A stretch of 64,000 nucleotides of DNA from Alteromonas sp. CI.11.F.A3 (GTDB lineage Bacteria; Pseudomonadota; Gammaproteobacteria; Enterobacterales; Alteromonadaceae). Made by a program: the position numbers and the translations under genes. The stretch is from positions 3,596,001-3,660,000 of the forward strand of contig NZ_CP136708.1 in NCBI RefSeq assembly GCF_032925565.1. Direction: 5' to 3'. The notes beneath the pieces were generated by a model. That model was given only the letters and a program-made list of their open reading frames with translations, was not told the origin of the DNA and did no database searches. Position 1 is the first letter of the stretch, and the number at the start of each line of letters is the position of its first letter. Below are positions 43,803 to 64,000 of this stretch, in pieces.

Positions 43803-44920
43803 AAGTCGTTTTTCGAGTTGATGCTTCAATTGCTATTGGAGCCGGCCACGTTATGCGTTGCCTTACTTTAGCGCACGCACTTCGTGGCAAGGCCTATTGC
43901 GAATTTGTTGTCAGTAAAAGCGGGGCTGCACTTTCATTTAAGATAGAAAATGCTGGGTATAATATTCATGTTATTGATGACATTAACAATGACCCAGCGC
44001 AACACGCGACAAATACGTTAGCAGTAATATCGCCTGAAACCGACTTGATCATTATCGACCACTATAGCTTGGACAAGCGCTACGAAACGCTTTTATACAA
44101 CCACGATTTGAATGTAATGGTTATTGATGATCTTGCCGATAGAAAACACCATTGCGACCTTTTGTTAGATGGGAATTTATTGCCCGACTATCGTTCACGA
44201 TACGATGGCCTTGTATCGAATAACTGCACTATGCTTTTAGGGCCACAGTTCGCGTTATTAAGAGAAGAGTTTTACGCGCCTGTACAAACAAAAAGACCCA
44301 AACACCTACCCAATATCGCACTTAAAACCAACGAGAAACAAAAAAGAAAGCGTATTCTGGTTTGCTTTGGGGGTACAGATCCGCAAAATGTAACCGATAA
44401 AACCCTATCAGCGATAAGTAAGATAGACGCGACCTTTGTTGACGTTGATGTTGTTATTGGTAGCCAGCATGAGAATTATGCTCAGATTGTTTCAAAAGTG
44501 GCGCAATTTTCTACTATGACATTGCACGTAGATACCACGCGAATGGCTATCTTGATGCAGCAAGCGACAATAATGATTGGTGCGGGTGGCAGTATGCACT
44601 GGGAACGCTGTGTATCTGCCCTACCAGGCATAATCATCACTCTCGCTGCTAACCAGGTTGCGACGACAAAATACCTATCAGAGCTGGGGGCGTGTGAATG
44701 GCTAGGGGAAAGCGACTCAGTAACAGAAGAAACAATTAAGCGTTCCGTAATAGCATTGTTAAATGATTCATCAACTCAGCAATGCATGTCTCAAATAGCA
44801 TCGCAGCTTGTACCTAAAGATGGCGGGGTTGATGCAGTGGTTGATGCGATAATAGCAAAAATGATTCAAATAAAAGGCGAGTCGTTGTTAAACAGTAGAA
44901 CATTAAGAGAGGAAGGCTAA
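43796..44920 (+). CDS. pseG: UDP-sugar hydrolase PseG
   Basis: A 374-residue GT-B-fold hydrolase that removes UDP from UDP-2,4-diacetamido-2,4,6-trideoxy-beta-L-altropyranose to give the free sugar for PseI. Catalytic His18 is in GAGHVMRC near the start, and the C-terminal MIGAGGSMHWERCV resembles the donor-nucleotide site of MurG-type enzymes. The ATG lies in the end of pseF. A GTG-started pseI follows one base later. Confidence 0.93.
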   Translation: MLKVVFRVDASIAIGAGHVMRCLTLAHALRGKAYCEFVVSKSGAALSFKIENAGYNIHVIDDINNDPAQHATNTLAVISPETDLIIIDHYSLDKRYETLLYNHDLNVMVIDDLADRKHHCDLLLDGNLLPDYRSRYDGLVSNNCTMLLGPQFALLREEFYAPVQTKRPKHLPNIALKTNEKQKRKRILVCFGGTDPQNVTDKTLSAISKIDATFVDVDVVIGSQHENYAQIVSKVAQFSTMTLHVDTTRMAILMQQATIMIGAGGSMHWERCVSALPGIIITLAANQVATTKYLSELGACEWLGESDSVTEETIKRSVIALLNDSSTQQCMSQIASQLVPKDGGVDAVVDAIIAKMIQIKGESLLNSRTLREEG

Positions 44921-44921
44921 C

Positions 44922-45971
44922 GTGGATACATTTTCAATTGGTCACCATACCATTGGTGACACACAGCCCCCTTTTATTATTGCGGAATTATCCGGTAATC
45001 ATAACCAAGATCTTGATGTTGCATTGGCCATGGTAGACGCCGCTGCAGAAGCTGGTGTACATGCATTAAAGTTGCAGACTTACACTGCGGATACCATGAC
45101 ATTAGATATTGCTACTGGCGAGTTCTATATTGATGATGAGAATAGCCTGTGGCACGGTTCGTCGTTGTATCAGCTATATGAAAAAGCGTTTACGCCATGG
45201 GAGTGGCATAACGCTATTTTTGAACGAGCGAAAGAAAAAGGGATGGTTGCCTTTAGCACGCCGTTCGATCTTACTTCAGTCGCATTTCTAGAAAGTCTAG
45301 AAGTACCTTGTTATAAAATAGCCTCATTTGAAAATACTGACCACGCGCTCATTGCTGCTGTGGCTAGAACGGGCAAACCCGTTATTGTCTCTACGGGTAT
45401 GGCGAGTTTGACAGAAATTTCAGAAGCGGTAGATGTATTACGTAACAATGGCTGCGAGAATTACGTGCTACTTAAATGTACTAGTCAATACCCTGCCGAC
45501 CCAGTAAACGCTAACTTAATGACCTTGCCCCATTTAAAAGCCATGTTCGGATGCCACGTGGGACTATCTGATCACACCACTGGTATAGGGGTAGCCATTG
45601 CAGCTGCCGCACTAGGCGCGAGTGTAATTGAAAAACATTTCGTTATTGATAGAAATGCCGGCGGCGTGGACGCGGCATTTTCTTTAGAACCTAAAGAATT
45701 TAAACAGCTAGTAGAAGAAAGTCAGCGCGCGCGCATTGCAGTAGGGGAAGTTAATTACGGCTGTACCGAGGCAGAGGTGAATTCACGGGTACACAGGCGT
45801 TCGCTTTATATCGCTAACGATTTGAAGGCCGGTGATGTTTTAACCCCCACAAACTTGCGTTCAATTAGACCAGGCCTTGGTTTGCCAGTTAAAAACTTGC
45901 CCATGTTGTTAGGGAAGCCTGTCAAACAAGACGTGGCAAAGGGTACCCCAATGAGCTGGGACCTTATTTAA
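44922..45971 (+). CDS. pseI: pseudaminic acid synthase PseI
   Basis: A 349-residue NeuB-family synthase condensing the PseG product with phosphoenolpyruvate. The TIM barrel (PFIIAELSGNHNQDLDVAL; SDHTTGIGVAIAAAALGA; EKHFVIDR) is followed by a C-terminal SAF antifreeze-like domain (RRSLYIANDLKAGDVL). AELSGNHN is typical of PseI, where NeuB/LegI enzymes read AE-x-G-x-NHNG. It starts with GTG and is preceded by GAGGAAGG-like bases at the pseG end. Confidence 0.93.
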   Translation: MDTFSIGHHTIGDTQPPFIIAELSGNHNQDLDVALAMVDAAAEAGVHALKLQTYTADTMTLDIATGEFYIDDENSLWHGSSLYQLYEKAFTPWEWHNAIFERAKEKGMVAFSTPFDLTSVAFLESLEVPCYKIASFENTDHALIAAVARTGKPVIVSTGMASLTEISEAVDVLRNNGCENYVLLKCTSQYPADPVNANLMTLPHLKAMFGCHVGLSDHTTGIGVAIAAAALGASVIEKHFVIDRNAGGVDAAFSLEPKEFKQLVEESQRARIAVGEVNYGCTEAEVNSRVHRRSLYIANDLKAGDVLTPTNLRSIRPGLGLPVKNLPMLLGKPVKQDVAKGTPMSWDLI

Positions 45972-45975
45972 TCCC

Positions 45976-46671
45976 ATGACGCATATTCCCGAAACACCTA
46001 AACAAGCAGCATCTAAACCAGCAGCGCCTCTTTCAAAAGCAACTAGCGCAAAAACTAAAACTTCGCCTAGTAGTCAGTTTATACCATTGAACGAGACACA
46101 CCTTGAAACGGTGCTTGGGTGGCGTAACTTACCGCACATACGCGAAAACATGCACTCTACTGATGAGATAAGCTGGCAACAGCACCTTAGTTGGTTTGAA
46201 ACACTTAAAAACAACGCGGAAAAGCAGTTCTTCGTCTTTATGCAAAACGAGCGCCCTATTGGTGTATTAAATTTCACTTCAATGGGCGCTATTGAGAATA
46301 ACCCTGAACTAACAACGCCCTGCATAGAATGGGGATGTTATATTGGTGAGGACAATGTGTGGCCGGGGTCAGGGTTGCTATTAGAAATTGCCGCACTCGA
46401 TTATGCATTGATTAATAAAAATGCAGCGGCCTTATATGCCGAGGTGCTGTCGTCCAACCAATCCGTGCTTAAAATGCACAAGTTGTTTCAATACGAAGCA
46501 CTTGAAGATCGAATAGACGAAAAACCAAAGAAAAAAGACGGCACTACTGTTACGGTTAAACGCTTTTTATACCAACAAAAGCAGTGGCTTACCAAACGGG
46601 AAAAAGTGCTTTCAATGTTACCAAAGCAAATTGGCGCAGCGGCACAGCATATACACTTTGCTAAACCTTAA
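45976..46671 (+). CDS. pseH: GNAT N-acetyltransferase, PseH-like
   Basis: A 231-residue protein with an Ala/Lys/Ser/Thr-rich first 35 residues, then a GNAT domain (about 36-190) with the acetyl-CoA region IEWGCYIGEDNVWPGSGLLLE. In the pathway PseH acetylates C4-N after PseC. Position four bases after pseI and the presence of all other Pse enzymes support that role. The low-complexity N terminus and a Lys-rich C terminus are extra; a further acyl specificity is possible. Confidence 0.8.
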   Translation: MTHIPETPKQAASKPAAPLSKATSAKTKTSPSSQFIPLNETHLETVLGWRNLPHIRENMHSTDEISWQQHLSWFETLKNNAEKQFFVFMQNERPIGVLNFTSMGAIENNPELTTPCIEWGCYIGEDNVWPGSGLLLEIAALDYALINKNAAALYAEVLSSNQSVLKMHKLFQYEALEDRIDEKPKKKDGTTVTVKRFLYQQKQWLTKREKVLSMLPKQIGAAAQHIHFAKP

Positions 46672-50786: not shown

Positions 50787-51842
50787 TCACATGATAGGGT
50801 CGGCAAGCTTTATCGTTCTAATACGTGGTTCTTTATCGATGTACTTATAAACTGTCTCCAACCCTTGAAGGTTATTACACGCAGTAAAATTCCAAACATG
50901 TGAGTCTGCTGCATCTTTCCATGTGCTCATTAATGGCTGAACGCACACGACGTCTATATTGGGAAACATACGAGCGCATGTGAATAGAGCCGTTGTATGA
51001 TAGCTAATTATAGTCGCAGGCACTTCTTCTCTCTTTGAAAGCTCATTCTCTATTGGCTTATCGAAGCGTTTAACAGTAATCCCCAACGCTTTAATCTTAC
51101 TTAAAAGCAGCTCACTCTCTATCCGGTGAGGAACATAGACTATCGCTTTTCCTATAAATTCCAGTGCGGTCTTTGCAATCAAATCTACGTACTTTTCAAG
51201 TGTAATGTAACCTACAGTCACCGCTCCGACGCCTAGGATAAAAGCCTGCTCTTGGTTTAATTTTTTATCGGTTCTTTTAAGATGTAAAAGAGGATTTTTA
51301 ACGACAGAAAGCCATGGCAGCGACGCTAAATTAAACATCGTAAATAGCGATAGAGTTGATAATTCTTTTGTCTTTATTCCTAATTTTTCCCGAGTTTGTT
51401 CGGCTAATTTTCGCCTCTCGTCGTCGCTATCAAAGGGAAAATCAAAAAATTTCTGATGCGTAAAGAGATACTCATAAAATATCACGGTAGCATTACCATC
51501 ATCCATGAGAACCGTATTTTCAGCTTGTAAAGTACAGACAATATCGCGCTGCCATTGTTGGCGTATCGCACTAAAAAAAACGTTTGTATAGCCAGTTTGG
51601 ATAAAGGACTGTATGAACCTACCATAAGCTTCTATACGTTCAGATATATTACCGTCAACCCGGGGCACTTCGAAAAGCTGTGTTGGGTTAAGCTCAACTA
51701 GCCTAGCTTGTAACTGTTGATAAGTATCAACACGATTGCAGTCGTTTATTATTACATCGTAACTGTCTATCTTATAAACCGCGATAGCATCCATGATGTT
51801 GTAAACTTGAGAAGGTGTATCTACGATAAAAAGTGTTCGCAT
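50787..51842 (-). CDS. sialyltransferase-like glycosyltransferase
   Basis: A 351-residue GT-B-type protein that I cannot assign to a named enzyme. Motifs in the order of bacterial sialyltransferases are visible: acidic DDG at residues 114-116 (VLMDDGNAT), PHR at 238-240 (in place of the HP motif) and a Ser/Thr pair near 280-284 (SYHTTALF). It is the last gene of the leg operon, nine bases after the CMP-sugar synthase. The natural role is transfer of legionaminic acid, or a derivative, onto a surface acceptor. A family 52-type or polysialyltransferase-type assignment is plausible but unproven. Confidence 0.7.
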   Translation of the reverse strand: MRTLFIVDTPSQVYNIMDAIAVYKIDSYDVIINDCNRVDTYQQLQARLVELNPTQLFEVPRVDGNISERIEAYGRFIQSFIQTGYTNVFFSAIRQQWQRDIVCTLQAENTVLMDDGNATVIFYEYLFTHQKFFDFPFDSDDERRKLAEQTREKLGIKTKELSTLSLFTMFNLASLPWLSVVKNPLLHLKRTDKKLNQEQAFILGVGAVTVGYITLEKYVDLIAKTALEFIGKAIVYVPHRIESELLLSKIKALGITVKRFDKPIENELSKREEVPATIISYHTTALFTCARMFPNIDVVCVQPLMSTWKDAADSHVWNFTACNNLQGLETVYKYIDKEPRIRTIKLADPIM

Positions 51843-51850
51843 TAATTACC

Positions 51851-52558
51851 CTAAGCGCGTTTGCTAAACAAAAATTCGGCGAACTCAAAATCAAGCTTGT
51901 CATCAATATCAACCGAATGAGATGGCTCCATAACATAAGCGTAGCTATCTGGAAGATTAAAGAAGCTTTTATCAGTTTCAATGGTCGACATTTTAGCAAT
52001 ATAAATTGCACCATTTAAACGGAAATATGAAGGTAAATCCTGGCTTCGAATACCTACAACGTCATCTCGAATGAACGAACTCATACTCTTGTCTTCATTC
52101 AATGTGTTCGACCAAAGAGGGGAATGCTCACATTCAGTAACCGATACCACCGAGGTCGCGTTCTTTTCTTCAAACAAACGAAATGCTCCCTCAATATCTT
52201 CTTTTGTTCTCAAAGGCGAGGTAGGTTGAAGTAAAATCACACCCTCATATGGTTTGTCAGATATTTTTGCTTCTGCAATAGCATGGAATAATACATCCAT
52301 TGAACTGGCTGTGTCCGATGCTAGCGCTAGAGGCCGGTCAATTATTGTTACATATTCACTGTATTGCTTAGCAACGTTTTTAACTTTGGTATCATCAGTA
52401 GTAACAACTATATCTATGTCGATACCAGCAGTAATAGCAGACTCTATTGTCCAAGCTATTAGTGGTTTCCCATTGATGACACGATGATTTTTACCTGGTA
52501 ATCGCTTACTCCCGGCCCTTGCAGGGATAACAGCTAGGTAGCATGGTTTACAATTCAC
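51851..52558 (-). CDS. legF: CMP-nonulosonate cytidylyltransferase (LegF/NeuA type)
   Basis: A 235-residue CMP-sugar synthase with AVIPARAGSKRLPGKN, LLQPTSPLRTKEDI and HSVDIDDKLDFEFAE. Its place in the leg operon makes legionaminic acid the probable substrate, while the pse operon has its own pseF. It overlaps the preceding ptmE-like gene by 11 bases. Confidence 0.88.
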   Translation of the reverse strand: MNCKPCYLAVIPARAGSKRLPGKNHRVINGKPLIAWTIESAITAGIDIDIVVTTDDTKVKNVAKQYSEYVTIIDRPLALASDTASSMDVLFHAIAEAKISDKPYEGVILLQPTSPLRTKEDIEGAFRLFEEKNATSVVSVTECEHSPLWSNTLNEDKSMSSFIRDDVVGIRSQDLPSYFRLNGAIYIAKMSTIETDKSFFNLPDSYAYVMEPSHSVDIDDKLDFEFAEFLFSKRA

Positions 52559-53615
52559 TGAATGCTTCCATCACAAACTGTTGCGCTTTTTTAAAATCAC
52601 CTAGGCGACCTATATCTAACCAGTCTTCACTTATTTCATAATAGGTTACTTGGGAATTAGCCTCAATTAACCGGGTAACAATTGTAGGTACATCCACCCT
52701 TACCCCTTTATCAAGTGCACCAATAACATTAGGTTCCATCACGTATATTCCGGCGTTAACCAAGTATTGATTCGTAGGCTTCTCGATAATGTTAGTTACG
52801 GCACCATCACTGGTATTTACCACACCGAAGGGGACTTGCTGCTCGTACCCTCTTAAACACATGGTCATACTTGCTTCTGAAGTTTCATGGTGTGCTAGCA
52901 ATGATAAAAAATCTAAATTGGTTAATAGATCACCGTTCATCAATATGAGCGGCAAATTGATTTCTTCTTCTGGTAGTAGAGATAAGGCCCCACCTGTGCC
53001 TAAAGGCTCTTTCTCATCGATATAACTAATTTGAATATCCCGTTCATGCCCATCGCCAAAATAATCTTTTATGGTATCGGCCATGTAATGAGTAGAAATA
53101 TAGAATCGCCAGAAACCAGCCTCAACAAAACGCTCTAGAATGATTTCTAATATCGGTTTATCACCTACATTTAGCATAGGTTTAGGGCAAGTATCGGTAA
53201 GCGGCTTAAGTCGTGTTCCAAAGCCTCCCGCCATGAGACAAACAGGATTATCGATACGAGGTTTTTTTAACAGTTCATATAGAAATGAGATACCCACTAC
53301 TTGCTGATTTTCATCAACAATTGGTAGTTGAAGTAAATCAGTCCTTTCCATAAAAGACAGCAGTCTTAATCGGCTCCACGCTTTAGTTGCGTAACGTGGT
53401 TTTGTATTCATTACACTTGATACACGAGAATTAAGATCTATTTGTCTAATTAACGCTCGACGTATATCACCATCGGTCAACGTGCCTAAGAGTATATTGT
53501 TTTCATCTACCACGACAAGGATGCGCTTTGCACCGTGGTCTAACTTTTTAACTGCATCCACCAGCGATATACTGGGCTGGACTAGCAAGTCTCTCCAATT
53601 AAACTTCTTATTCAT
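52548..53615 (-). CDS. ptmE: CBS-domain nucleotidyltransferase, PtmE-like
   Basis: A 355-residue protein with two CBS domains (about 12-65 and 70-120) and a nucleotidyltransferase domain opening LMAGGFGTRLKPLTDTCPKPM. This CBS-plus-transferase architecture is that of Campylobacter PtmE, which makes GDP-glucosamine for the GDP-based legionaminate route. It is located between the acyltransferase and the CMP-sugar synthase. Nucleotide preference cannot be read from sequence alone. Confidence 0.85.
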   Translation of the reverse strand: MNKKFNWRDLLVQPSISLVDAVKKLDHGAKRILVVVDENNILLGTLTDGDIRRALIRQIDLNSRVSSVMNTKPRYATKAWSRLRLLSFMERTDLLQLPIVDENQQVVGISFLYELLKKPRIDNPVCLMAGGFGTRLKPLTDTCPKPMLNVGDKPILEIILERFVEAGFWRFYISTHYMADTIKDYFGDGHERDIQISYIDEKEPLGTGGALSLLPEEEINLPLILMNGDLLTNLDFLSLLAHHETSEASMTMCLRGYEQQVPFGVVNTSDGAVTNIIEKPTNQYLVNAGIYVMEPNVIGALDKGVRVDVPTIVTRLIEANSQVTYYEISEDWLDIGRLGDFKKAQQFVMEAFSEL

Positions 53616-53630: not shown

Positions 53631-54266
53631 TTACTTACCAGGTTTAGCAGGGCACCCTTTTACACACGAAAAAGGCTGAATGTTATTAACGACTACCGCA
53701 CCCGCAGCGATTATCGAATCGTGGCCAATGCTCACACCTTGAATTAAGGTAGAAGAAGCGCCGACATACACATGTTCGCCAACTTTCACGTCACCGCACA
53801 ACGTCGCATTAGGGGCAATATGGCTGTGTGCCGACACATGAGTATCATGATCTACACTAGCGCACGTATTGATAATAACGTTATCGGCACATACTGCATT
53901 TGCTTGAACTATTGCTCCGGCCATTACCTGGGCTCCTTCACCGAGACAGGCTGAGGGCGAAACACTGGAAAATGGATGGATAAGTGTTTTAAACTGAAAC
54001 CCTCTTTTTTTAAAAAACATATAAAGTGATTTTCGGGTGTCGCTATTAGGTATACTTCCTAAGCCTAGGACTAAATCTACTTCATTAGATGAAAAACGGG
54101 TTAAAAAGTCGCTTTCACAGATCAATGGTAATCCGCTCCATACCGTTTGGTTCGGTGCTTTATCTACGACCGCAATACAGGTGAAATTCCGCTGCAAAAG
54201 TATATCAAGCAAAACCCCTGCATGCCCACCGGCACCAATAAGTGCTATTGGCTTTTGAACTGACAT
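53631..54266 (-). CDS. legH: NeuD/LegH-type sugar O- or N-acyltransferase
   Basis: A 211-residue acyltransferase: N-terminal Rossmann-like domain (ALIGAGGHAGVLLDI) and a left-handed beta-helix of hexapeptides (AGAIVQANAVCADNVIINTCASVDH). In the leg pathway this position acetylates C4-N of the LegC product. The start is the ATG at 54266, with GGAA nearby, overlapping the end of legI by 22 bases. O-acetylation of the finished acid is an alternative. Confidence 0.82.
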   Translation of the reverse strand: MSVQKPIALIGAGGHAGVLLDILLQRNFTCIAVVDKAPNQTVWSGLPLICESDFLTRFSSNEVDLVLGLGSIPNSDTRKSLYMFFKKRGFQFKTLIHPFSSVSPSACLGEGAQVMAGAIVQANAVCADNVIINTCASVDHDTHVSAHSHIAPNATLCGDVKVGEHVYVGASSTLIQGVSIGHDSIIAAGAVVVNNIQPFSCVKGCPAKPGK

Positions 54267-55339
54267 ACCGGTTCCATAGCATCGTAGTTTCGAGACGCAG
54301 TTTGTCCAATAAAGCTCCAATATTCGCTGGCACAAATGCCTATTGGACTTCTAGCAGTGGTGAGGTTTTCTTGAGTAAATAAAGCCCCTTCACTAATTTC
54401 TTGCTTAGCTACAATTCTCTGCCTTGCAATTTTTTTTGTTTCAAACTCGTTAGGCTGAGGGAATTTAACAGTGCGCCCCAATGACACCTCGGTCTCTCTG
54501 ATCATTGAAACCATGTCACAGAGCTCTTTTGGCTCTAGAGAACATAAATGATCAGGCCCCTCCATCTCGCGCGACAGTGTAAAGTGTTTTTCGATACAAA
54601 CAGCGCCTAAAGCTACAGCAGTAGATGGTGTAACGACGGACAACGTGTGGTCACTAAACCCAACACTGACATCAAATGTTGTCGCAAGCTGAGCCATACT
54701 TTTCAGATTTGCCTGATATAACGGCGTTGGGTATTCGCTTGTACAGTGGAGTAAGGTTACATCAGAAAGCTTTTCATTAGCATTCAAAGCTGTAGCACGA
54801 TAATGCATAATTTCTTGTTCAGATGAAGGCGGAGTCGCATTGCCACGGCTATATTGGATAAACGCTAGCGCAAAATCAATATCCCCTAAAGTCGCCATAC
54901 CAGAGGATATTATCATTGGTTTACCCACTTTCGCTGCGTGCCACAACAGCAGTGCATTTCGTATCTCACCTGAAGGTATTTTAATAAACGGCATATCAAA
55001 CTGCGAAAGAAATGCTAGGCTTTGTACGTCGAAGGCCGTTGACATGAAAGCAATTTCTTTTTGTTTACAATATTCATAAAGCGCTAAATGCGCTTCTTTG
55101 GAAAGCTCAAGTTTAGCTAACATGGCGTGCTGACCGTCATCTACTCCGGTATTTCTAACTTGATATTTGGCTTTTGGCGTTGCTTTAGTTACCAACGCAC
55201 TCGCATCAAATGTTTGAAATTTGACTGCATCTGCTTGAGCTTCTACCGCAACATCAATCAATTGCTTTGCCAATGCAATATCACCATTATGATTCACTCC
55301 TGCTTCAGCAATAACATACGTCTTACCTGTTTTCATCAT
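54245..55339 (-). CDS. legI: legionaminic acid synthase LegI (NeuB family)
   Basis: A 364-residue PEP-condensing synthase with IAEAGVNHNGDIALAK, KFQTFDASALV, SDHTLSVVTPSTAVALGA and EKHFTLSR, followed by a C-terminal SAF domain. AEAGVNHNG is the NeuB/LegI form rather than PseI. It is downstream of the sulfotransferase gene with two bases between. Co-occurrence with LegB, LegC and LegG fixes the leg route over sialic acid. Confidence 0.9.
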   Translation of the reverse strand: MMKTGKTYVIAEAGVNHNGDIALAKQLIDVAVEAQADAVKFQTFDASALVTKATPKAKYQVRNTGVDDGQHAMLAKLELSKEAHLALYEYCKQKEIAFMSTAFDVQSLAFLSQFDMPFIKIPSGEIRNALLLWHAAKVGKPMIISSGMATLGDIDFALAFIQYSRGNATPPSSEQEIMHYRATALNANEKLSDVTLLHCTSEYPTPLYQANLKSMAQLATTFDVSVGFSDHTLSVVTPSTAVALGAVCIEKHFTLSREMEGPDHLCSLEPKELCDMVSMIRETEVSLGRTVKFPQPNEFETKKIARQRIVAKQEISEGALFTQENLTTARSPIGICASEYWSFIGQTASRNYDAMEPVCQFKSQ

Positions 55340-55341: not shown

Positions 55342-56301
55342 CTAAATCTCTTTGTGTAAAGGGTAGCCCTGCTGCGCAAGTGATAAATTAAAGTGGCTTT
55401 GCATTAACGCATTCGATTTTGCGAACTGGGCGTGTATTACACGCTGCCTTTCACTTTCTATGTGTAAGTTCGACGAAGTAAAAATACGCCTGATAATATA
55501 GGGATCAATATATTCTTGAAGGTACTTTCGAATATAAAACCTTGAGCGTGGTTGACGGGTAAACCGCTTTGGACCTAGTGAATTGAACCGGCTTGGAATG
55601 ATATAATTTAACAGTCGCAAAAGTGAAAGTGTTTGGCGAGATAAACTCACATTTTCATGTTCAGAAGATATAGTAGAGAGTGGTCTGTCTGTGTCTAATT
55701 GCATCCATTGAAATAACCTCTCAATTTCATTTTCCGGAGCCTGCTTTAGTAATTCGTACGTCTGAATATATACGTTGCTTTGACCAAACAACTCGCAATA
55801 TAACGAAGCCACCTTAAAATAATCGAGATAAACTAGATTAAGCCCAACACGATAAGGGTAATCTAAAGACAGAAAATCTTCTAATTTCCACGTTCCACCT
55901 TCTTGAATGTATTGGGCGTAAAGCGACTTAATAAGTGATAACTGCTCTCTAATATAGAAAATAACTTTCGCGTTCGGGAAGCATTGCTTTAAACGGTTTG
56001 CAATTCTAACTAATCCATCTGAATTGAAAGCGGAATCGCCTAGTAAATGCTCCCAAGAGATAACCACTTTCCTCTGATTGGATTGGGACACAATTTTTAA
56101 AACCTGCTGAACAACAAATTCAGGGTCAAAATCTAAATCATGGGCAGCCACCAAATGTAGCCCCCAATCACTCAGCTTATAGCTATTCCCTATCTGTAAT
56201 AAAGAAGGCTCATCTTTATATACGTGAGTTTGCATCCACGTGGTTGCTGTTTTCGGATACCCCACGTGAATGAATAACTCAATGTCATCTATAGTTAGCA
56301 T
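55342..56301 (-). CDS. PAPS-dependent sulfotransferase family protein
   Basis: A 319-residue protein. The 5'-phosphosulfate loop GYPKTATTWMQ is at residues 14-24 and the 3'-phosphate-binding segment has Arg118 and Ser122/126 (YIREQLSLIKSLY), both typical of sulfotransferases. There is no membrane segment. The start shares one base with the PIG-L stop (TAATG), so it is tightly coupled to that gene. It lies inside the leg operon, upstream of legI, suggesting sulfation of the sugar or glycan. The acceptor is unknown. Confidence 0.83.
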   Translation of the reverse strand: MLTIDDIELFIHVGYPKTATTWMQTHVYKDEPSLLQIGNSYKLSDWGLHLVAAHDLDFDPEFVVQQVLKIVSQSNQRKVVISWEHLLGDSAFNSDGLVRIANRLKQCFPNAKVIFYIREQLSLIKSLYAQYIQEGGTWKLEDFLSLDYPYRVGLNLVYLDYFKVASLYCELFGQSNVYIQTYELLKQAPENEIERLFQWMQLDTDRPLSTISSEHENVSLSRQTLSLLRLLNYIIPSRFNSLGPKRFTRQPRSRFYIRKYLQEYIDPYIIRRIFTSSNLHIESERQRVIHAQFAKSNALMQSHFNLSLAQQGYPLHKEI

Positions 56302-56972
56302 TACCAGCGCTGCCGAAGGATTACAAAAGCCTCTGCTGCATCAACAAACGCTTGTGAACCTCTTAATATTTCAAGCGCTTCTACAGCCTTAAAGCTTCTA
56401 GGGAAAGGGTGGGCATGCATTTCAGACCCATAGCATTTTAAAATTTGGTGCTTTTGCTCAATAAACTCAGATGTGTCCACATACATATTGGGTTGAAACT
56501 GCGTATTTAGCGGACTCAGTCCGTAATCGGTTTCAGATAATGTTTCATAACAGATTATTGATGAAACGTAAGGCGCTCTGAATGTTTTCGTTACTGAAAT
56601 AATGGCCTGATATACAACTTTATGATCACTATGAACATCAAACGCATAGGGTAAATATATTGTATCTGGCTTAATAGACTCTAACGTATCTTTTAACGCA
56701 TTAAGTAACTGCCCCATTGGAACATTATCTAGGCCAGCAGGCTGAAAGCCTAAGTTGATAACAGAGTTAAAGTCATACAATTGAGCAACTTGCTTTATTG
56801 TATCCTCCCTCTGTTTTTTTTGTTCCGACGTATACGAGTCGCTGACGCTCATATCGGTAACAATACACCAATGCACTTCATGCCCTAATGCCTTGTGCTT
56901 TAAGAGTGTTCCGCCACACCCTAAACTTTCATCATCAGGGTGAGGAGCGAAAACCATCACTTTTTTGTTCAT
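56301..56972 (-). CDS. PIG-L (LmbE) family deacetylase
   Basis: A 223-residue zinc deacetylase. The metal motif HPDDE starts at His11 and the second motif HSDH supplies His114/His117. The family removes N-acetyl from sugars such as GlcNAc. It overlaps both neighbours (ATGA with the aminotransferase, TAATG with the sulfotransferase). It could deacetylate a sugar so that it can be re-acylated or sulfated; inferred from neighbours only. Confidence 0.87.
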   Translation of the reverse strand: MNKKVMVFAPHPDDESLGCGGTLLKHKALGHEVHWCIVTDMSVSDSYTSEQKKQREDTIKQVAQLYDFNSVINLGFQPAGLDNVPMGQLLNALKDTLESIKPDTIYLPYAFDVHSDHKVVYQAIISVTKTFRAPYVSSIICYETLSETDYGLSPLNTQFQPNMYVDTSEFIEQKHQILKCYGSEMHAHPFPRSFKAVEALEILRGSQAFVDAAEAFVILRQRW

Positions 56973-58000
56973 TTATAAATGCCTCTATCAAACTGCTGTT
57001 GCACTAAACTGATAACAACGTCTTGAGATGCATTAGATAAACAAGGGTATAATGGGATGGATACGTTTTTATTGAAAGCCGATTGTGCGTTAGGATAAAT
57101 CGACAGGTCGTTAACCCAACTCGTTACCGGTTTGACCATTTCTACTTGCGATCCTAGTGACATTATCAATTCATCTGCTTTATTCACTGAAATTACGTAA
57201 CGATACCACACCCTATTTTCAAGGTTACCCACACAGTATTTTGCCAGCGGGTTATTGCCAAGGTAACGACTAGCTAAATGCTTTCGGCTTTTTAATAACT
57301 CGTTCGCACCATTCACCTTACTTAACGCTAAAACAGCATTAAATTCATCAGGCTTAACGTTTAGACAAAACCCATCAGGCTTCTCAGAATACCCTACTCT
57401 ACGCGCCTTTAGTTGCTCGTGAGCCTCTTCATCATTAAGCAACAGTACGCCCATCTCTACAGCACCAAATAGCTTGGTGGCATAGAATGATTGAATCGCT
57501 ACGTCACCTTGAATATCAGGGTGATTATCATCATTTAGCGCAAAGCCATGGGAACAATCTTCTATAACAAATAGCCCGTTGGCTCTTAATTCAGTAATAG
57601 CAGCGGGGATCCCAAAGGTATTTACAGCAATGACAACATGCGCCTTGTGGCTATTTGCTAAAGAAACGGCGTGTGAAACATCAATATTACAAGTATTAGA
57701 TTCTATCTCACAAGGGAGCACATTCGCGCCAAGAGATAATACGGTATTGCAAATTGCGCTGCAGGAGTAAACGGGAACAATTATGTTATCGCCATGCTTA
57801 ACGCCCGCGGCGATTAACGCTAAACGCAGTGCCATTGAGCCGGAGGATACGGCTAGCGCATAGGGTTTGTCATAATATTGCACACAAGCGTCTTCAAAAG
57901 AAGCCACTGCTTTGCCCATCGTATAAAACTCAGTATCAACAACCTCGTGCAAAGCACGCTTATCCGAGTGGGAAAAATTGATCACATTATGAAGGATCAC
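56969..58000 (-). CDS. DegT/DnrJ/EryC1-family aminotransferase
   Basis: A 343-residue PLP enzyme; PLP Lys176 is in SFYATKLFGA, with SSGSMALRLALI and VIEDCSHGFAL for cofactor binding. It is a second DegT enzyme beside legC and shares low similarity with it by eye. It starts with GTG overlapping the FAD enzyme stop (GTGA). A coupled FAD oxidoreductase and aminotransferase suggest oxidation of a sugar carbon followed by amination, but that is inferred from coupling. Confidence 0.85.
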   Translation of the reverse strand: MILHNVINFSHSDKRALHEVVDTEFYTMGKAVASFEDACVQYYDKPYALAVSSGSMALRLALIAAGVKHGDNIIVPVYSCSAICNTVLSLGANVLPCEIESNTCNIDVSHAVSLANSHKAHVVIAVNTFGIPAAITELRANGLFVIEDCSHGFALNDDNHPDIQGDVAIQSFYATKLFGAVEMGVLLLNDEEAHEQLKARRVGYSEKPDGFCLNVKPDEFNAVLALSKVNGANELLKSRKHLASRYLGNNPLAKYCVGNLENRVWYRYVISVNKADELIMSLGSQVEMVKPVTSWVNDLSIYPNAQSAFNKNVSIPLYPCLSNASQDVVISLVQQQFDRGIYK

Positions 58001-59328
58001 GTTATTTTCTCTTCTTCTATTTTTGTTTTTAATGAATTAAAGGTTCTGATCATCACATCGTTAGAGAAAAAAGTACTCGGCTCAGCTGAACCCACCAGAT
58101 GTATATTGTTAAACGTATCTGTAATTTCATCACATAATTTGCGGGCGTTGGATAGAGCTCCTACCCGCTTAATTGGAAAACCATTAAGTACCTGTGTTTC
58201 ATGGCTACCAATCACTTTCGTATCTGCTGATACTATTCTCATCTCTACAAGTTGACGAAAAATTTCAGCTTCATTAAGACTAGGGTTCTGTGCTCGTTCG
58301 CCAATCACTTCAACGGTACATCTGTACAATTTTTTCTTATCTATTCTTCCAGCGAAATTTTCGTAGAGGGTTACTCGATAGGGGTCAACGTGGGTATCAA
58401 AACAATTCACGTAGTGACAAGGCGTTAAATAAGGAGTGTCGAACACAAAATGGAAAAGCTTAATTTTAGTTCGTTGATAGTAGCTGGAAAATTTTTCACT
58501 ACTTTGATGTGAAACCAAAGGAAGTAGTGTTTCAATCGGCGCAGACCAAATCACCTGATTACAGATAAAAGTTGAGCCATTATCGAAAATTAATTTTTTA
58601 ATTTTATGGTTATCAACTTCAAATCCAACGGTCTTTTTCCCATGAAGAAATTTAACCCCTAGTTGGTCTAACTGCCTTTTTAAAAGTGCTATCCAATCGC
58701 TTACTCCCTTTCCGTTTGACGTGTAGAACGCAGTTGGAATTTTTTTTCCCTGAGGGTGTATTCGTGAATCAGCTAAGCGGGTATTTGGGGAAGCACTGCC
58801 ACCATGTTGGGATAAACGGTCTAAAGCAAAATATCGCTGAACTTCTGGTTCAAGCTTTTCAGCCTCGCATGGAATAAATTTTTCTAGGCTAGGTAAAAAA
58901 ACATGGTTAGTAAGATACTTACCGAACCTGAAACGATAATCATCTACACAATTTACTTCTTTTTCGGGAAGTTTCACGTTGTCATCGAGGTCATCATAGG
59001 TAGAACGGCTTAAAATATTATGATGGTTTTCGTCTAACTGACCATCGTAATAATTTCCGCCATTAATCCGCGTAATTTTTTGCCAAGCATCGTTTTCATA
59101 TAGTGCGCCAAATAACCACTCATCTAATTCATCAATCATGGTTTCAGCGGGAATGTGGGTACCGATGTCAAAGCTTAAGCTGCCTATTTCATGGGAGACG
59201 CCAAGTAGACCGCCAAGATTAGGGCTAGCTTCAATAACGATGACATCATGTTTAGGGTGCGCTTTTTTTAAAGTAAATGCAGCAACGATACCACCGATAC
59301 CGCCCCCTACAATTGCAATTACAGACAT
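57997..59328 (-). CDS. FAD-dependent oxidoreductase (amine oxidase / protoporphyrinogen oxidase-like)
   Basis: A 443-residue flavoprotein. FAD dinucleotide motif GGGIGG (8-13) followed by VIEASPNLGG, and a C-terminal FAD segment ending LVGSAEPSTFFSNDVMIRTFNSL. The fold type is shared by amine oxidases, UDP-galactopyranose mutase relatives and desaturases. I cannot name the substrate. It is 26 bp after legG and coupled by a GTGA overlap to the aminotransferase. Confidence 0.8.
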   Translation of the reverse strand: MSVIAIVGGGIGGIVAAFTLKKAHPKHDVIVIEASPNLGGLLGVSHEIGSLSFDIGTHIPAETMIDELDEWLFGALYENDAWQKITRINGGNYYDGQLDENHHNILSRSTYDDLDDNVKLPEKEVNCVDDYRFRFGKYLTNHVFLPSLEKFIPCEAEKLEPEVQRYFALDRLSQHGGSASPNTRLADSRIHPQGKKIPTAFYTSNGKGVSDWIALLKRQLDQLGVKFLHGKKTVGFEVDNHKIKKLIFDNGSTFICNQVIWSAPIETLLPLVSHQSSEKFSSYYQRTKIKLFHFVFDTPYLTPCHYVNCFDTHVDPYRVTLYENFAGRIDKKKLYRCTVEVIGERAQNPSLNEAEIFRQLVEMRIVSADTKVIGSHETQVLNGFPIKRVGALSNARKLCDEITDTFNNIHLVGSAEPSTFFSNDVMIRTFNSLKTKIEEEKIT

Positions 59329-59354: not shown

Positions 59355-60545
59355 TTAAAAGGTAATTTGTTTGGCGAACACTTTTTTCTTTATCGGCAGT
59401 TCCATTAAAATCTTCAATACACGAGCGGCCATTAACCCATCACCATATAAGCTTTGATTCGGATTTAATTGCCCTCGAAATGTTTCATCGTACAACGCGG
59501 TTTGTATCGCTTTTTCTACAGCATCTTCGTTACTTTCACAAAATATAACGTTGCCTGAATGTTCTCGACCGCGCTGCCGCTCACCTATATTAATAGCAGG
59601 CAAGCCTAGATAATCTGCTTCATGAAACGCAAGCGATGAGTTACCCATTAATAAGTCAGCATGTCGGAGCAAATTTATAAATGCATCTCTTGATAGGTTT
59701 TTATATACCTGAACACCTTCGAGTCCATTTATAAACTTCACGATTTCAAAAGAACCAGGGTCCGAATTAGGGACACCAATAATCACCTGTAGTCCAGCTT
59801 CAATCGCTTTTTGAACACCGGCGCTAATTTCTATTTTGGCAATGGCAAAATCACCATTTAATGGGTGATGGATAAATACAGCATAGGGAGATTCAGTATT
59901 TAGTTCAGTGGCTCTTCTTAATTCATCACGAGACAGGTGAGATGTTAAACGCAACCTATCGACACCGCCGCTTCCGACAGTGTGCACTCTCCAAGCCTCT
60001 TCACCCAATTTTAAAATTCTCTCGCTATGAGAAGAGGTCATCGTTAAATGAAGATGACTTAACTTTGTTGTTGCATGCCTTGACTGCTCATCAACATTCC
60101 CCCCTTCCGGGTTGGTACTGTCACCCCCAGCGAGATGAACAATGGGCACGTTCATATAGTTGCCTACCATAGCAGCAACCAGCGGCTCTTCACGGTCTCC
60201 TAACACTAAAAGAAGATCTGGTGAGTTCTCAGCAACCGCTTCCCCGAGGCCTTTCATCAATAATGAGCATGATAAGACTCTATTTGTGACGTCGTCCTGT
60301 TCGATGGTGGTTTCAATTCGTGAGCAGATAGTAAAACCATCTTGTTCAATTTCTTTGACTGAGTAATTATGAAGTGATGTAAGGTGCGCTCCAGTGACAA
60401 CCACCGATACATCAAAATAAGCAGAATTATGCATTTCCTTTAACAGCGGGTACATGAGGTCATACTCACTGCGAATACCCGTAACTGCCATTACAGAAAT
60501 GCATTGGTTGCTCTCGTCTAGTAAACCAAGACTCTCATTTTTCAT
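59355..60545 (-). CDS. legG: hydrolysing UDP/GDP-sugar 2-epimerase LegG (NeuC family)
   Basis: A 396-residue epimerase/hydrolase producing 2,4-diacetamido-2,4,6-trideoxy-mannose. TGIRSEYDLMYPLLKEM, GDREEPLVAAM, HLAGGDS and the C-terminal MGNSSLAFHEADYLG and NIGERQRGREHSGNV are family marks. The ATG at 60545 is used; it lies inside the end of the methyltransferase gene (11-base overlap). Confidence 0.93.
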   Translation of the reverse strand: MKNESLGLLDESNQCISVMAVTGIRSEYDLMYPLLKEMHNSAYFDVSVVVTGAHLTSLHNYSVKEIEQDGFTICSRIETTIEQDDVTNRVLSCSLLMKGLGEAVAENSPDLLLVLGDREEPLVAAMVGNYMNVPIVHLAGGDSTNPEGGNVDEQSRHATTKLSHLHLTMTSSHSERILKLGEEAWRVHTVGSGGVDRLRLTSHLSRDELRRATELNTESPYAVFIHHPLNGDFAIAKIEISAGVQKAIEAGLQVIIGVPNSDPGSFEIVKFINGLEGVQVYKNLSRDAFINLLRHADLLMGNSSLAFHEADYLGLPAINIGERQRGREHSGNVIFCESNEDAVEKAIQTALYDETFRGQLNPNQSLYGDGLMAARVLKILMELPIKKKVFAKQITF

Positions 60546-61185
60546 AGTGGAAAACCCAGTGACGTGAATACGTTTCGCCAAGTAAGGGGCTTTGCATTAG
60601 GCCAATATCAATCGACTCATCTACAATATTTTTAACACTATTCTCGCAAGGGAAACAAAGAATTTTTGCGCCTTTTTGACTGGAAATTTGAGATTCAAAT
60701 TCATGTTCATTTAGGGCCTTAGCACTATTATGAGAAACATCACCATAGGCTGGAACTGTGCCTAGCATTTTACCACCGGGCTTTAATACTCGTTTGAATT
60801 CTTGAATTCGCTTATCTAACGAACGCATCGAGTTGTACCCTAGAACATGCCAAGCGTTAATAAATGAAAAACTATTATCTTTAAAGGGTAATACGTCTGA
60901 ATTTATATTGAAAAGTTCGGCTTCAAGCGACTCATCTTCTAATATCTGCTGGTTGATTTCTATCACCGCATCTGAAATTTCTATTCCCGTTACTTTATGA
61001 CCGCGTCTTAGCATAACCCGCATATTCGCCCCACCACCAAAGCCATAATCCAATACAGAAGGATGGGCCTCCACGCTGGTGTACCTATTTAATAACGTGA
61101 CAAATGTACTGTCAGGGTATTTAAGTAGAGATTGCTTTTGCTGGTAAAGTTTATCCCACACAGATTCATTCACATTATGACTCAT
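60535..61185 (-). CDS. class I SAM-dependent methyltransferase
   Basis: A 216-residue methyltransferase with motif I VLDYGFGGGANMRVM (about residues 44-58), EISDAVIEIN and RVLKPGGKMLGTVP. It overlaps the WbqC-like gene by 11 bases and legG by 11 bases, so it belongs to the same transcript. It probably methylates a sugar hydroxyl or amine of the nonulosonic acid or its glycan. The exact target cannot be read. Confidence 0.88.
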   Translation of the reverse strand: MSHNVNESVWDKLYQQKQSLLKYPDSTFVTLLNRYTSVEAHPSVLDYGFGGGANMRVMLRRGHKVTGIEISDAVIEINQQILEDESLEAELFNINSDVLPFKDNSFSFINAWHVLGYNSMRSLDKRIQEFKRVLKPGGKMLGTVPAYGDVSHNSAKALNEHEFESQISSQKGAKILCFPCENSVKNIVDESIDIGLMQSPLLGETYSRHWVFHYEK

Positions 61186-61897
61186 AATGGTACTCTCCTG
61201 GTTTATGTAGATAATCTATTATCGACTCAATTTCGTCTTGCATTAACCAGTCTAGTATTGATAAGCCTGATGCTTTCTCTCGGTGCATTTGATGATAAGT
61301 ATTAAGTTCATTGTTGAGAAAGCGTAGCGTAAGGTTATTTGCTTGAAAATCGTCATGCGCCAAATACGCTTTCGCGCCAACCCCAGACAAATAAATAGCA
61401 CATTGAGTTTGTAGACAGGTATCTACTACTAGTTGATTTTTTTTGCTACTCACATTCAACTCAGACAATAGTACTAATTTATTTTTTATTAAAAAAATAG
61501 AACGAAAATAATTAATTAGCGCAAAGTTGATATTATGCAAGCTTCCTTCTGTATCATTAATACGCTGTGCAATATCGTCAAAGTAGCGTTTAAAAAAAGG
61601 GGCTTTTCCATAACTACTTCTGATACTTTGTATATGCTTTTTTTTCCACTTACTGTCTATCGGCTGCTTTTGCTCAATAGTGTCTTTTAAGCTTCCTGAT
61701 ACTGGTACAGTAAGCCACAGCGGTCCGTTGTTAGAATTAATTTGATTTCTATTTTGCACACCATTTTTCTGGTATTGCACATTATCCATCAAGACGAAAG
61801 TATCCGCTAAAGCCATCTTCCTGAAATAGGGAGCCCAAGGTAGATATTGACTTTGGTGCATGGCAAGGACCGTATTGCTCAACGTCAAACTCTCCAC
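61175..61897 (-). CDS. WbqC-like family protein
   Basis: A 240-residue WbqC-family protein, marked by HQSQYLPWAPYFRKMALADTF near the start, DNVQYQKNG, NRNQI, and the C-terminal TYHQMH. Members occur in O-antigen and capsule loci and their reaction is not established. Here it lies between legC (3 bp) and a methyltransferase (overlap of 11 bases), hinting at a joint modification step. Confidence 0.85.
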   Translation of the reverse strand: MESLTLSNTVLAMHQSQYLPWAPYFRKMALADTFVLMDNVQYQKNGVQNRNQINSNNGPLWLTVPVSGSLKDTIEQKQPIDSKWKKKHIQSIRSSYGKAPFFKRYFDDIAQRINDTEGSLHNINFALINYFRSIFLIKNKLVLLSELNVSSKKNQLVVDTCLQTQCAIYLSGVGAKAYLAHDDFQANNLTLRFLNNELNTYHQMHREKASGLSILDWLMQDEIESIIDYLHKPGEYHYES

Positions 61898-61900: not shown

Positions 61901-63040
61901 CTACCCCCTCACCGAACTAGGTAAATTCACTAACCGTTTAGCCAGCCACTCAGTGTTATCTAAGGGGCCTCGAATAGATTTAGCGTACATAGGAAGAAAG
62001 TGCATAGGCGTCCATACAGGGCGGAGCATGATGCCAGCATCATTACTCGATGACAGTAGCAAGTTTCTTTGGTTTTCGTCTTTGCAAATAACTGCATTTA
62101 ACCAATAGTTGGATACACAGCCTTCTGGCTCCTTCACAAAGGTATAAGGTCCTTCAGAAAAGAAATCTTCGTAAATTGACGCTAATTCACGTTTGTTTGT
62201 TATAAATTTTTCTAATTGTGCGAGTTGCGCGCACCCCAAAGCGGCATTCAAATTTGGCATTCGAAAATTGCAGGCAACGTCATCGTGGAAAAATTCAAAT
62301 CTATGCGGGACTTTTGCGGTAGTAGTAAAATGTTTTATCTTTTTATATGCCATTTCACTTTTACACAAGATGGCGCCACCGCCTCCTGTAGTGATAATTT
62401 TATTACCATTGAAACTCAAGGCGCCGTATTGGCCAAACGTACCCAAAGACTTGCCTTTAAATGAAGAGCCTAAACTTTCAGCCGAATCCTCTACTAGTGC
62501 AATACCCCATGTTTCGCATATTTTAGCCAATGCATCTATTTCAGCGGGGTGCCCAAAGGTATGCATTGGAACTACCGCTTTCACAACTTGTTCAGTTTTC
62601 TTGTATATACACTGCCCGTCTAGATAATCACAATGCGTACTCAAAAATGTTGAAAGTGAATTAGGGCACATTCCCAACGTCTTCATACTGACATCCACGA
62701 ACGCAGCTTCGCCTCCCAACCAGTGAATGGCATTGCAAGTCGCTACAAACGTTAAAGACTGTGTAACAACAATATCATTAGCCCGAACGCCGGCTAAATA
62801 AAGTGCGGTTTGAAGTGCAGCAGTACCGTTTACAACGGCAACACTATAAGGAGCTTGGCAAAAAGCGGCCAGTTCACTTTCGAACGCGTCAACATAAGCA
62901 CCAACACTTGAAACAAAAGTTGAATCTATTGTCTCGGTGATATTATTCTTCTCGTCGCCACCGAAAAAAGGAGCATGAAGAGGAATATTATCGTTAGTGT
63001 TGAAAACGTCTCTTATGAAATTAATAAGCGTATTGTGCAT
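61901..63040 (-). CDS. legC: UDP/GDP-4-keto-sugar aminotransferase LegC
   Basis: A 379-residue DegT-type PLP enzyme: NGTAALQTALYLAGV, VEDSAESLGSSFKGK and PLP Lys214 (ALSFNGNKIITTGGGG). The SFNGNK motif and the position eight bases after legB match LegC, which aminates the 4-keto sugar with retention. It differs from pseC and the other DegT gene. Confidence 0.93.
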   Translation of the reverse strand: MHNTLINFIRDVFNTNDNIPLHAPFFGGDEKNNITETIDSTFVSSVGAYVDAFESELAAFCQAPYSVAVVNGTAALQTALYLAGVRANDIVVTQSLTFVATCNAIHWLGGEAAFVDVSMKTLGMCPNSLSTFLSTHCDYLDGQCIYKKTEQVVKAVVPMHTFGHPAEIDALAKICETWGIALVEDSAESLGSSFKGKSLGTFGQYGALSFNGNKIITTGGGGAILCKSEMAYKKIKHFTTTAKVPHRFEFFHDDVACNFRMPNLNAALGCAQLAQLEKFITNKRELASIYEDFFSEGPYTFVKEPEGCVSNYWLNAVICKDENQRNLLLSSSNDAGIMLRPVWTPMHFLPMYAKSIRGPLDNTEWLAKRLVNLPSSVRG

Positions 63041-63048: not shown

Positions 63049-64000
63049 TTACTTGTTGTACCGGTCGGTTTTATATTGAGACAGGTTTTTGGGGTTCGAA
63101 AACCAAGATACGGTTTGCGTTAATCCCTCATCAATCGATGTAGAAGGTGCAAAGCCCGTGAGTTTTTTTAACTTCGCATTATTACCCCACAATCTAAAGA
63201 CCTCAGAGGTTTTAGGCCTTAGCCGAGCATTGTCAATCTCAAACACAACCGAACTGTTCATAATGTCACGTATTTTATTTAAGGTGGCTTCGACAGAAAT
63301 TTCGTAGTTAGTACTTATATTAACTACCTCACCTACCGCCGCTTCGCACTGACTAAGTTGCCAAAAACCTTCACAGGTATCTAATACGTAATTGAAATCA
63401 CGTGTAGGGCTAACATCCCCCAATTTAATCCTATCAACCCCAGAGGCAATCTGACTAATAATGGTAGGAATAACTGCTCGCGCTGACTGCCTTGGACCGT
63501 AGGTATTGAAAGGTCGAGCAATAATCACCGGCAGGTCAAAAGCATTAAAATAACTGGTAGCAATGGCATCTGCGCCAATTTTCGAAGCACTATAAGGTGA
63601 TTGCGCTTGAAGCGGATGATCTTCATCAATAGGAACATATTGTGCGGTTCCATATACCTCACTTGTAGAGGTTTGTATGAAGCGTTTTATACCATGGCGT
63701 TTTGCAGCCTGGCACATATTGAGTGTGCCCGTTACATTCGTGTCAACATAACTATTTGGAGCACTATAAGAATAAGGAATAGCGATTAGCGCAGCTAAAT
63801 GAAATACGATATCAATAGATTCACAAATGGTGTCACAAAAATGAGGGTCTCTTACATCTCCAAATACAATCTCGAGATTGTCTTCAGTTTTTTTTCCTTC
63901 CAACCAACCTTGAGAGTTAAAAGAGTTGTATTGACACAAGGCCCTAACTTCACAACCTTTAGACAATAATAATTCTGTAAGGTGTGACCCGATAAAACCA
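63049..64000 (-). CDS. legB: NAD-dependent 4,6-dehydratase LegB (5' end beyond window)
   Basis: An extended SDR with retaining 4,6-dehydratase character. The visible part starts in GFIGSHLTELL, the end of the Rossmann fingerprint, so only about ten residues are missing. TSTSEVYGTAQY and PYSASKIGAD hold the catalytic Tyr/Lys pair, and RPFNTYGPRQSARAVIP is typical of LegB-type enzymes. It opens the legionaminate operon, followed by legC. The in-frame TTG at 63966 is not the true start. Confidence 0.92.
   Translation of the reverse strand, partial: GFIGSHLTELLLSKGCEVRALCQYNSFNSQGWLEGKKTEDNLEIVFGDVRDPHFCDTICESIDIVFHLAALIAIPYSYSAPNSYVDTNVTGTLNMCQAAKRHGIKRFIQTSTSEVYGTAQYVPIDEDHPLQAQSPYSASKIGADAIATSYFNAFDLPVIIARPFNTYGPRQSARAVIPTIISQIASGVDRIKLGDVSPTRDFNYVLDTCEGFWQLSQCEAAVGEVVNISTNYEISVEATLNKIRDIMNSSVVFEIDNARLRPKTSEVFRLWGNNAKLKKLTGFAPSTSIDEGLTQTVSWFSNPKNLSQYKTDRYNK

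What the first reader, a model, noticed from the sequence alone, without database searches (positions are those of the whole stretch)
55342..59328. Overlapping four-gene cassette of flavoenzyme, aminotransferase, PIG-L deacetylase and sulfotransferase inside the leg operon
The four genes are joined by GTGA, ATGA and TAATG overlaps, so they are translated as a unit, and they sit between legG and legI. None belongs to the known legionaminate pathway. The order suggests oxidation, amination, deacetylation and sulfation of a sugar, which would give an unusual sulfated or amino-modified nonulosonic acid or neighbouring residue. I know of no described pathway with this combination.
Basis: partly seen in the sequence, partly recalled or inferred. 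Interest (0 to 1): 0.72.

Follow-up and report, generated by a model that had tools for sequence, protein, structure and literature searches.

The report
Extra sugar-tailoring genes in flagellin operon
Inside a marine bacterium's gene set for coating its flagella with a sialic-acid-like sugar sits a rare, conserved run of four enzyme genes that probably modify that sugar, perhaps by adding sulfate; the exact product is still unknown.

Summary
Four minus-strand genes (flavoenzyme, DegT aminotransferase, PIG-L deacetylase, sulfotransferase) lie between legG and legI with GTGA, ATGA and TAATG overlaps. The Leg-type operon stands beside a Maf glycosyltransferase, FliD and flagellin genes, so this is a flagellin-glycosylation island. 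A same-species genome carries a different operon in its place. Two revisions follow. (1) The tailoring set is six genes, not four: WbqC and a methyltransferase are extra too. (2) The flavoenzyme is not shown to be an oxidase. Of 33 fetched relatives, 31 lie near Maf or nonulosonate-synthase genes. The family keeps the histidine and two arginines of UDP-galactopyranose mutase, but the window protein hits no curated mutase model. The sulfotransferase fold is closest to 3rnl, NDST1 and 3-OST; sequence does not confirm that. Most likely a tailoring module for a sulfated, amino-modified nonulosonic acid or its neighbour on flagellin. The chemistry and order of steps are inferred. New variant of a known kind.

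The parts
57997..59328 (-). flavoenzyme, 443 aa, UDP-galactopyranose-mutase-like FAD protein
56969..58000 (-). DegT/DnrJ/EryC1-family aminotransferase, 343 aa, GTG start, Lys kept in SFYATK
   Evidence: Pfam DegT 157.5 bits; below LegC/PseC cut-offs; alignment
56301..56972 (-). PIG-L family N-deacetylase, 223 aa, motifs HPDDE and HSDH kept
   Evidence: Pfam PIG-L 87.2 bits; alignment; the one PIG-L match in its genome at E 0.001
55342..56301 (-). sulfotransferase, 319 aa, PKTATTW motif
   Evidence: Sulfotransfer_3 29.6 bits, cut-off 27; model pLDDT 82, closest to 3rnl, NDST1 and 3-OST
60535..61185 (-). SAM methyltransferase, further extra gene of the tailoring set
   Evidence: Methyltransf_25 60.3 bits; 59-61% in the three other loci
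61175..61897 (-). WbqC-like protein, further extra gene of the tailoring set
   Evidence: Pfam WbqC 201.3 bits; 54-57% in the three other loci
63049..63999 (-). legB (4,6-dehydratase), cut by window end
   Evidence: full copy L038:50-1039 LegB 490.9 bits, cut-off 475
61901..63040 (-). legC aminotransferase
   Evidence: TIGR04181 499.9 bits, cut-off 420
59355..60581 (-). legG (NeuC-type 2-epimerase)
   Evidence: TIGR03568 336.1 bits, cut-off 235.9
54245..55339 (-). legI (NeuB-type nonulosonate synthase)
   Evidence: TIGR03569 425.8 bits, cut-off 399.65
53631..54335 (-). NeuD/PglD-type acetyltransferase (probable legH); TTG start overlaps legI by 91 nt, true start probably downstream
   Evidence: TIGR03570 203.3 bits, cut-off 160.8; overlap
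52548..53615 (-). CBS-domain sugar-1-phosphate nucleotidylyltransferase (ptmE-like)
   Evidence: Pfam NTP_transferase and CBS; the name ptmE is recalled
51851..52558 (-). CMP-nonulosonate synthetase (probable legF)
   Evidence: CTP_transf_3 77.1 bits; 151.5 bits on PseF, under its cut-off 205.7
50787..51842 (-). 351-aa protein without Pfam match, last gene of the conserved operon; candidate nonulosonate transferase (inference)
   Evidence: no Pfam hit, no NCBIfam hit at 1e-10; 54-61% in the three other loci
40851..46671 (+). pseudaminate pathway pseB, pseC, pseF, pseG, pseI and a GNAT
   Evidence: PseB, PseC, PseF, PseG, PseI all over NCBIfam cut-offs; GNAT
39802..40602 (-). flagellin gene flanking the island
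   Evidence: Flagellin_N and Flagellin_C

Best explanation
The four genes are the core of a six-gene tailoring module (WbqC, methyltransferase, flavoenzyme, aminotransferase, PIG-L deacetylase, sulfotransferase) built into a legionaminate-type operon of a flagellin-glycosylation island. Shown: the operon encodes LegB-, LegC-, NeuC-, NeuB- and NeuD-type enzymes plus two nucleotidyltransferases, lies next to a Maf flagellin glycosyltransferase gene, and recurs with the cassette as one block. Inferred: the module acts in the cytoplasm on the nucleotide-activated nonulosonate or on the residue joined to it. The flavoenzyme, whose site resembles that of UDP-galactopyranose mutase, binds the activated sugar and prepares a carbon for the aminotransferase. 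PIG-L frees an amine from an N-acetyl group, and the sulfotransferase puts sulfate on that amine or on a nearby hydroxyl with PAPS. The finished sugar is transferred to flagellin, giving a negatively charged, strain-specific filament surface.
Against: No substrate is known for any of the four enzymes. The DegT aminotransferase label is present in only 14 of 33 flavoenzyme loci (16 of 33 if class-III aminotransferases count), so the flavin step does not always go with an aminotransferase of these kinds. The mutase-like residues argue against a plain oxidase. The sulfotransferase is in 3 of the 33 loci only, so it is an add-on. Controls came from one genus, most flavoenzyme loci from others, so the contrast is partly taxonomic. 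By sequence profile the sulfotransferase matches 3rnl (E 7.1e-14) and then cytosolic SULTs (3.2e-4), 3-OST-1 only at 0.47, and NDST is not listed; by Foldseek E-value a tyrosylprotein sulfotransferase ranks second. My searches showed no paper on a sulfated nonulosonate on flagellin (none, 10 of 28 listed).
Confidence: 0.6

Rival explanations
1. The flavoenzyme is a true nucleotide-sugar mutase or other redox-neutral flavin enzyme, and the cassette makes a separate activated sugar (for example a sulfated amino-furanose) that is attached next to the nonulosonate.
For: Colinear profile match to T. cruzi UGM (E 4e-15, positions 4-414) and to 13 bacterial UGMs (354 columns); His and two Arg of the UGM site invariant in 32 sequences. 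From established chemistry (recalled), a 5-amino nonulosonate has nitrogen at C5 and so cannot contract to an oxygen furanose, so a mutase would need another sugar.
Against: The window protein hits no curated UGM model at E 0.001; four relatives hit TIGR00031 weakly (G064 29.5, G286 24.4, G476 24.2, G516 24.2 bits; cut-off 303.75), as do many other FAD proteins. Two further UGM site residues (Asn201, Tyr317) align to unconserved positions. Fold scores tie with protoporphyrinogen oxidase. Carotene desaturase 4rep scores higher in sequence (E 3.4e-18, positions 2-309), and with the narrower 21-sequence profile UGM ranked sixth (E 7.3e-11), behind three protoporphyrinogen-oxidase entries' families and 4rep. 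No separate nucleotide-sugar synthase sits in the cassette.
Confidence: 0.25
2. A version of the first steps of the best explanation (the odds are not exclusive): the flavoenzyme oxidises a hydroxyl of the nonulosonate side chain (C8 is the exocyclic candidate) and the overlapping aminotransferase aminates the ketone, giving an extra amino group; deacetylation and sulfation follow.
For: Flavoenzyme and aminotransferase ORFs overlap in all four cassette loci; the aminotransferase keeps its Lys. Oxidation then amination of a ulosonate (Kdo8N) is recalled; an 8-amino-octulosonate transaminase (5k8b) is a weak hit (E 3.6e-7) among 56.
Against: DegT aminotransferase label absent in 19 of 33 flavoenzyme loci; UGM-like residues suggest no net redox.
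Confidence: 0.35
3. The genes are unrelated passengers collected in a variable glycosylation island, without a joint pathway.
For: The island is replaced between strains (L106, L107, L109 against the window); PIG-L, DegT and flavoenzyme genes recur in other combinations.
Against: Same order and similar divergence in four genomes; close homologs present in the same genomes.
Confidence: 0.1

Closest known systems
Flagellin glycosylation islands of Aeromonas (PMC7874193, passages) and Alteromonas flagellum-glycosylation replacement islands (PMC4033161 passages; PMC4119200 passage)
   Same: pse genes, Maf, carrier protein/AMP-ligase/SDR/Fgi-1 set, extra deacetylases, amino- and methyltransferases (Aeromonas); strain-variable island (Alteromonas)
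   Different: the terms sulfotransferase, flavin, FAD and mutase occur 0 times in the Aeromonas text, sulfotransferase and aminotransferase 0 times in PMC4033161, sulfotransferase 0 times in PMC4119200
Legionaminate pathway (legBCHGIF, ptm genes of Campylobacter; recalled)
   Same: legB, legC, NeuC-, NeuB- and NeuD-type genes, CBS nucleotidylyltransferase and CMP synthetase present
   Different: six additional genes, four of them the reported cassette
UDP-galactopyranose mutase (GLF; T. cruzi 4dsg)
   Same: fold, colinear profile alignment, His and two Arg of the active site
   Different: no hit to PF03275 or TIGR00031 for the window protein; about 13% structural identity; Asn201 and Tyr317 not matched
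Heparan sulfate N-deacetylase/N-sulfotransferase (NDST1) and 3-O-sulfotransferases
   Different: separate genes; deacetylase is PIG-L type; NDST not among the sequence matches

Membership tests
UDP-galactopyranose mutase | match to curated models PF03275 / TIGR00031 | tested here: not met
   no hit at E 0.001 in Pfam or NCBIfam for the window protein; four distant relatives hit TIGR00031 far below its cut-off
UDP-galactopyranose mutase | active-site His and two Arg (His62, Arg176, Arg327 of the T. cruzi enzyme, named in PMC4192007, passages) | tested here: met
   H58, R171, R318 align to H/R/R of 4dsg at chain-sequence positions 65, 179 and 330, all three at an offset of 3 from the paper's numbers (my count); invariant in 32 sequences. 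H58 and R318 also align to the bacterial H and R; R171 is shifted by a few positions there
UDP-galactopyranose mutase | Asn201 and Tyr317 of the site | tested here: inconclusive
   align to unconserved positions; the local alignment may be shifted
UDP-galactopyranose mutase | fold | tested here: inconclusive
LegC / PseC aminotransferase | score over equivalog cut-off | tested here: not met
   92.1 against 420 and 118.8 against 423.5 bits
DegT/DnrJ/EryC1 aminotransferase | Pfam model and catalytic Lys | tested here: met
   157.5 bits, cut-off 19.8; SFYATK; role of the Lys recalled
PIG-L deacetylase | Pfam model, HPDDE and HxDH metal motifs | tested here: met
   motif roles recalled
PAPS sulfotransferase | Pfam model and PKTxTTW phosphosulfate-binding motif | tested here: met
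   29.6 bits, cut-off 27; motif; motif meaning recalled
N-deacetylase/N-sulfotransferase | both activities in one polypeptide | tested here: not met
   two genes with a 1-nt overlap
N-deacetylase/N-sulfotransferase | sulfotransferase acts on an amine | not testable with these tools
   fold ties with 3-O-sulfotransferases
Legionaminate operon | LegB, LegC, NeuC-, NeuB- and NeuD-type proteins over curated cut-offs | tested here: met
   CMP synthetase only by Pfam; NeuC and NeuB models do not by themselves tell Leg from Neu
Flagellin glycosylation island | Maf and flagellin genes beside the pathway | tested here: met
   Maf L038, FliD and flagellin in L038, flagellin 39802-40602

The most novel reading that the evidence does not exclude
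The flavoenzymes form a family of mutase-like FAD enzymes dedicated to flagellin nonulosonate loci. Here such an enzyme and an aminotransferase add an amine, while the PIG-L and sulfotransferase pair works as a split bacterial N-deacetylase/N-sulfotransferase, so that flagellin carries an N-sulfated nonulosonic acid or amino sugar, a modification that my searches did not find reported.
Probability: 0.15. Interest if true: 0.8.

Novelty: new variant of a known kind. Interest (0 to 1): 0.52.

Why it matters
Nonulosonic acids on flagella bear on filament assembly, motility and surface recognition (general knowledge). A conserved sulfotransferase plus deacetylase in such an operon predicts a sulfated flagellar sugar that can be tested directly by mass spectrometry (80 Da). 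The flavoenzyme family, near Maf or synthase genes in 31 of 33 fetched loci, has a mutase-like site in a pathway whose 5-amino product cannot form an oxygen furanose, so either its reaction or its substrate should be unexpected.

Tried and rejected
Chance overlap: rejected because the block recurs in three other genomes. Plasmid origin: flavoenzyme tblastn against 72,556 plasmid records gave no match. The search against viral models gave generic flavoproteins. PDB sequence search with the sulfotransferase alone found nothing; with its alignment only 3rnl was strong, and cytosolic SULTs outscored 3-OST, so the NDST/3-OST link rests on fold alone; the idea that E84 is the catalytic Glu is recalled and untested. 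Aminotransferase PDB hits mix several regiochemistries, so none was drawn. The Shewanella sfm operon (PMC3765264, passages) was considered and dropped: its five genes are described as NeuB-type synthase, TPP enzyme, reductase, methyltransferase and ATP-grasp protein. Vibrionaceae nab clusters (PMC7371886, passages): one mention of a second aminotransferase, 'deacetylase' 0 times, the only 'sulfo' is a reagent. WbqC papers (listing of 7) gave no function. A search for 8-amino nonulosonates (20 of 75 listed) had 0 occurrences of '8-amino' in the 20 listed. The first co-occurrence count used seeds partly taken from flavoenzyme loci, which biases it; repeated with window seeds only, the aminotransferase falls to 4 of 33 against 0 of 30 because LegC seeds compete for the same proteins (LegC label 15 of 33 against 3 of 30). 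The profile comparison is not on equal footing: UGM was a 13-sequence alignment, the seven other flavoproteins single sequences.
Full report
Anatomy. The operon reads legB, legC, WbqC, methyltransferase, legG, flavoenzyme, aminotransferase, PIG-L, sulfotransferase, legI, NeuD-type acetyltransferase, CBS nucleotidylyltransferase, CMP synthetase and a 351-aa protein without Pfam match. LegB, LegC, NeuC-, NeuB- and NeuD-type proteins pass their curated cut-offs; the CMP synthetase is below the PseF cut-off. Just outside the window, beyond legB, lies a 1123-aa Maf glycosyltransferase and then FliD and flagellin genes. On the other side of the island are pseB, pseC, pseF, pseG and pseI, all over cut-off, a carrier protein (PP-binding), an AMP-ligase, an SDR and a CDP-glycerol-type transferase, resembling the set described for Aeromonas group II (PMC7874193, passages), and a flagellin gene. 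The genome is Alteromonas-like, judged from names of homologs; the record itself is unnamed.

Conservation. The flavoenzyme search over 5.8 billion proteins found 20 relatives, 13 of them at 47% identity or more; the sulfotransferase search found 19, ten of them (the window's own included) at 42% or more over at least 74% of the query. Five longest-contig lengths are shared between flavoenzyme hits and aminotransferase or sulfotransferase hits (8869, 9920, 12495, 18523, 316065), which suggests the same contigs. In the genus, own genome included: flavoenzyme 4 of 59 (three close, one at 29%; E 1e-10), aminotransferase 3 of 59 (E 1e-30), PIG-L 5 of 59 (three close; E 1e-10). In the family: sulfotransferase 6 of 395 (four at 50% or more), flavoenzyme 31 of 395. 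In the order sample the flavoenzyme was found in 8 of 394. The three other cassette loci (L028, L029, L079) have the complete operon in the same order; protein identities to the window are 47-49% flavoenzyme, 50-54% aminotransferase, 62-63% PIG-L, 50-54% sulfotransferase, and 50-77% for the other ten proteins. The same-species genome G047 and genomes G058 and G009 keep the pse half (PseI 100, 99 and 80%) but hold a different nonulosonate operon (LegI 40%) in this place. This fits the replacement islands described for Alteromonas flagellum glycosylation (PMC4033161, passages).

Neighbourhoods. I fetched up to 20 kb (13-20 kb) around the flavoenzyme loci of all 33 other genomes found in the family and order searches. 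Of these, 31 hold Maf, PseI or LegI (24 a synthase, 29 Maf); the two others are L092 and L097. Thirty control loci with a nonulosonate synthase were chosen by hand from the 54 genus genomes that had a synthase match but no flavoenzyme match. With seeds partly from flavoenzyme loci the counts are: extra DegT aminotransferase 14 of 33 against 1 of 30, PIG-L 7 against 0, WbqC 16 against 3, methyltransferase 31 against 3, sulfotransferase 3 against 0. With window seeds only: aminotransferase 4 of 33 against 0 of 30 (competing with LegC, 15 against 3), PIG-L 7 against 0, WbqC 16 against 3, methyltransferase 18 against 3, sulfotransferase 3 against 0. So the flavoenzyme belongs to a wider pool of tailoring genes, the aminotransferase and PIG-L are companions in a minority of loci, and the sulfotransferase is a rare addition. 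The taxonomic difference between the two sets is a weakness of this contrast.

Verdict. The block is real, conserved and rare, and sits in a flagellin-glycosylation island. It most likely tailors a Leg-type sugar or its neighbour. The proposed sequence oxidation, amination, deacetylation, sulfation is one of several possible and its first step is the weakest. Searches of the held library for legionaminate with PIG-L and sulfotransferase (no paper), Alteromonas flagellin legionaminate (two papers), sulfated nonulosonates or flagellin (no paper), nonulosonate with furanose or UGM (four papers) and sulfated flagellin more widely (10 of 28 listed) showed no description of it; for only the listings were read. 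Most subscription papers are not held.

Noticed in passing
window 50787-51842: 351-aa protein without Pfam or NCBIfam match, conserved 54-61% in the three other cassette loci, divergent copies (24-28%) in other nonulosonate loci (L106, L107, L109, L126, L128); candidate nonulosonate transferase.
   Followed up: partly
window 46695-50766: Carrier protein, AMP-ligase, SDR and CDP-glycerol-type transferase resemble the set of Aeromonas flagellin islands group II, here in the pse half of the island.
   Followed up: partly
L106, L107, L109: Same-species and related genomes carry a different nonulosonate operon in place of the Leg operon while PseI is 80-100% identical: a replacement island.
   Followed up: partly
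P0055, P0066, P0069 and others: Metagenomic relatives of the aminotransferase carry a GNAT acetyltransferase domain in the same chain, a hint that its amine product is N-acylated.
   Followed up: no
L034, L035, L090, L091, L093, L094, L100, L101: A different recurrent module in pse flagellin loci: flavoenzyme, PseG-like or similar protein, methyltransferase, short DegT aminotransferase, methyltransferase, WbqC, with a class-III aminotransferase in the locus.
   Followed up: partly
L104 (G011): PIG-L homolog whose ORF lacks the N-terminal metal motif, in a locus with flagellin genes.
   Followed up: no
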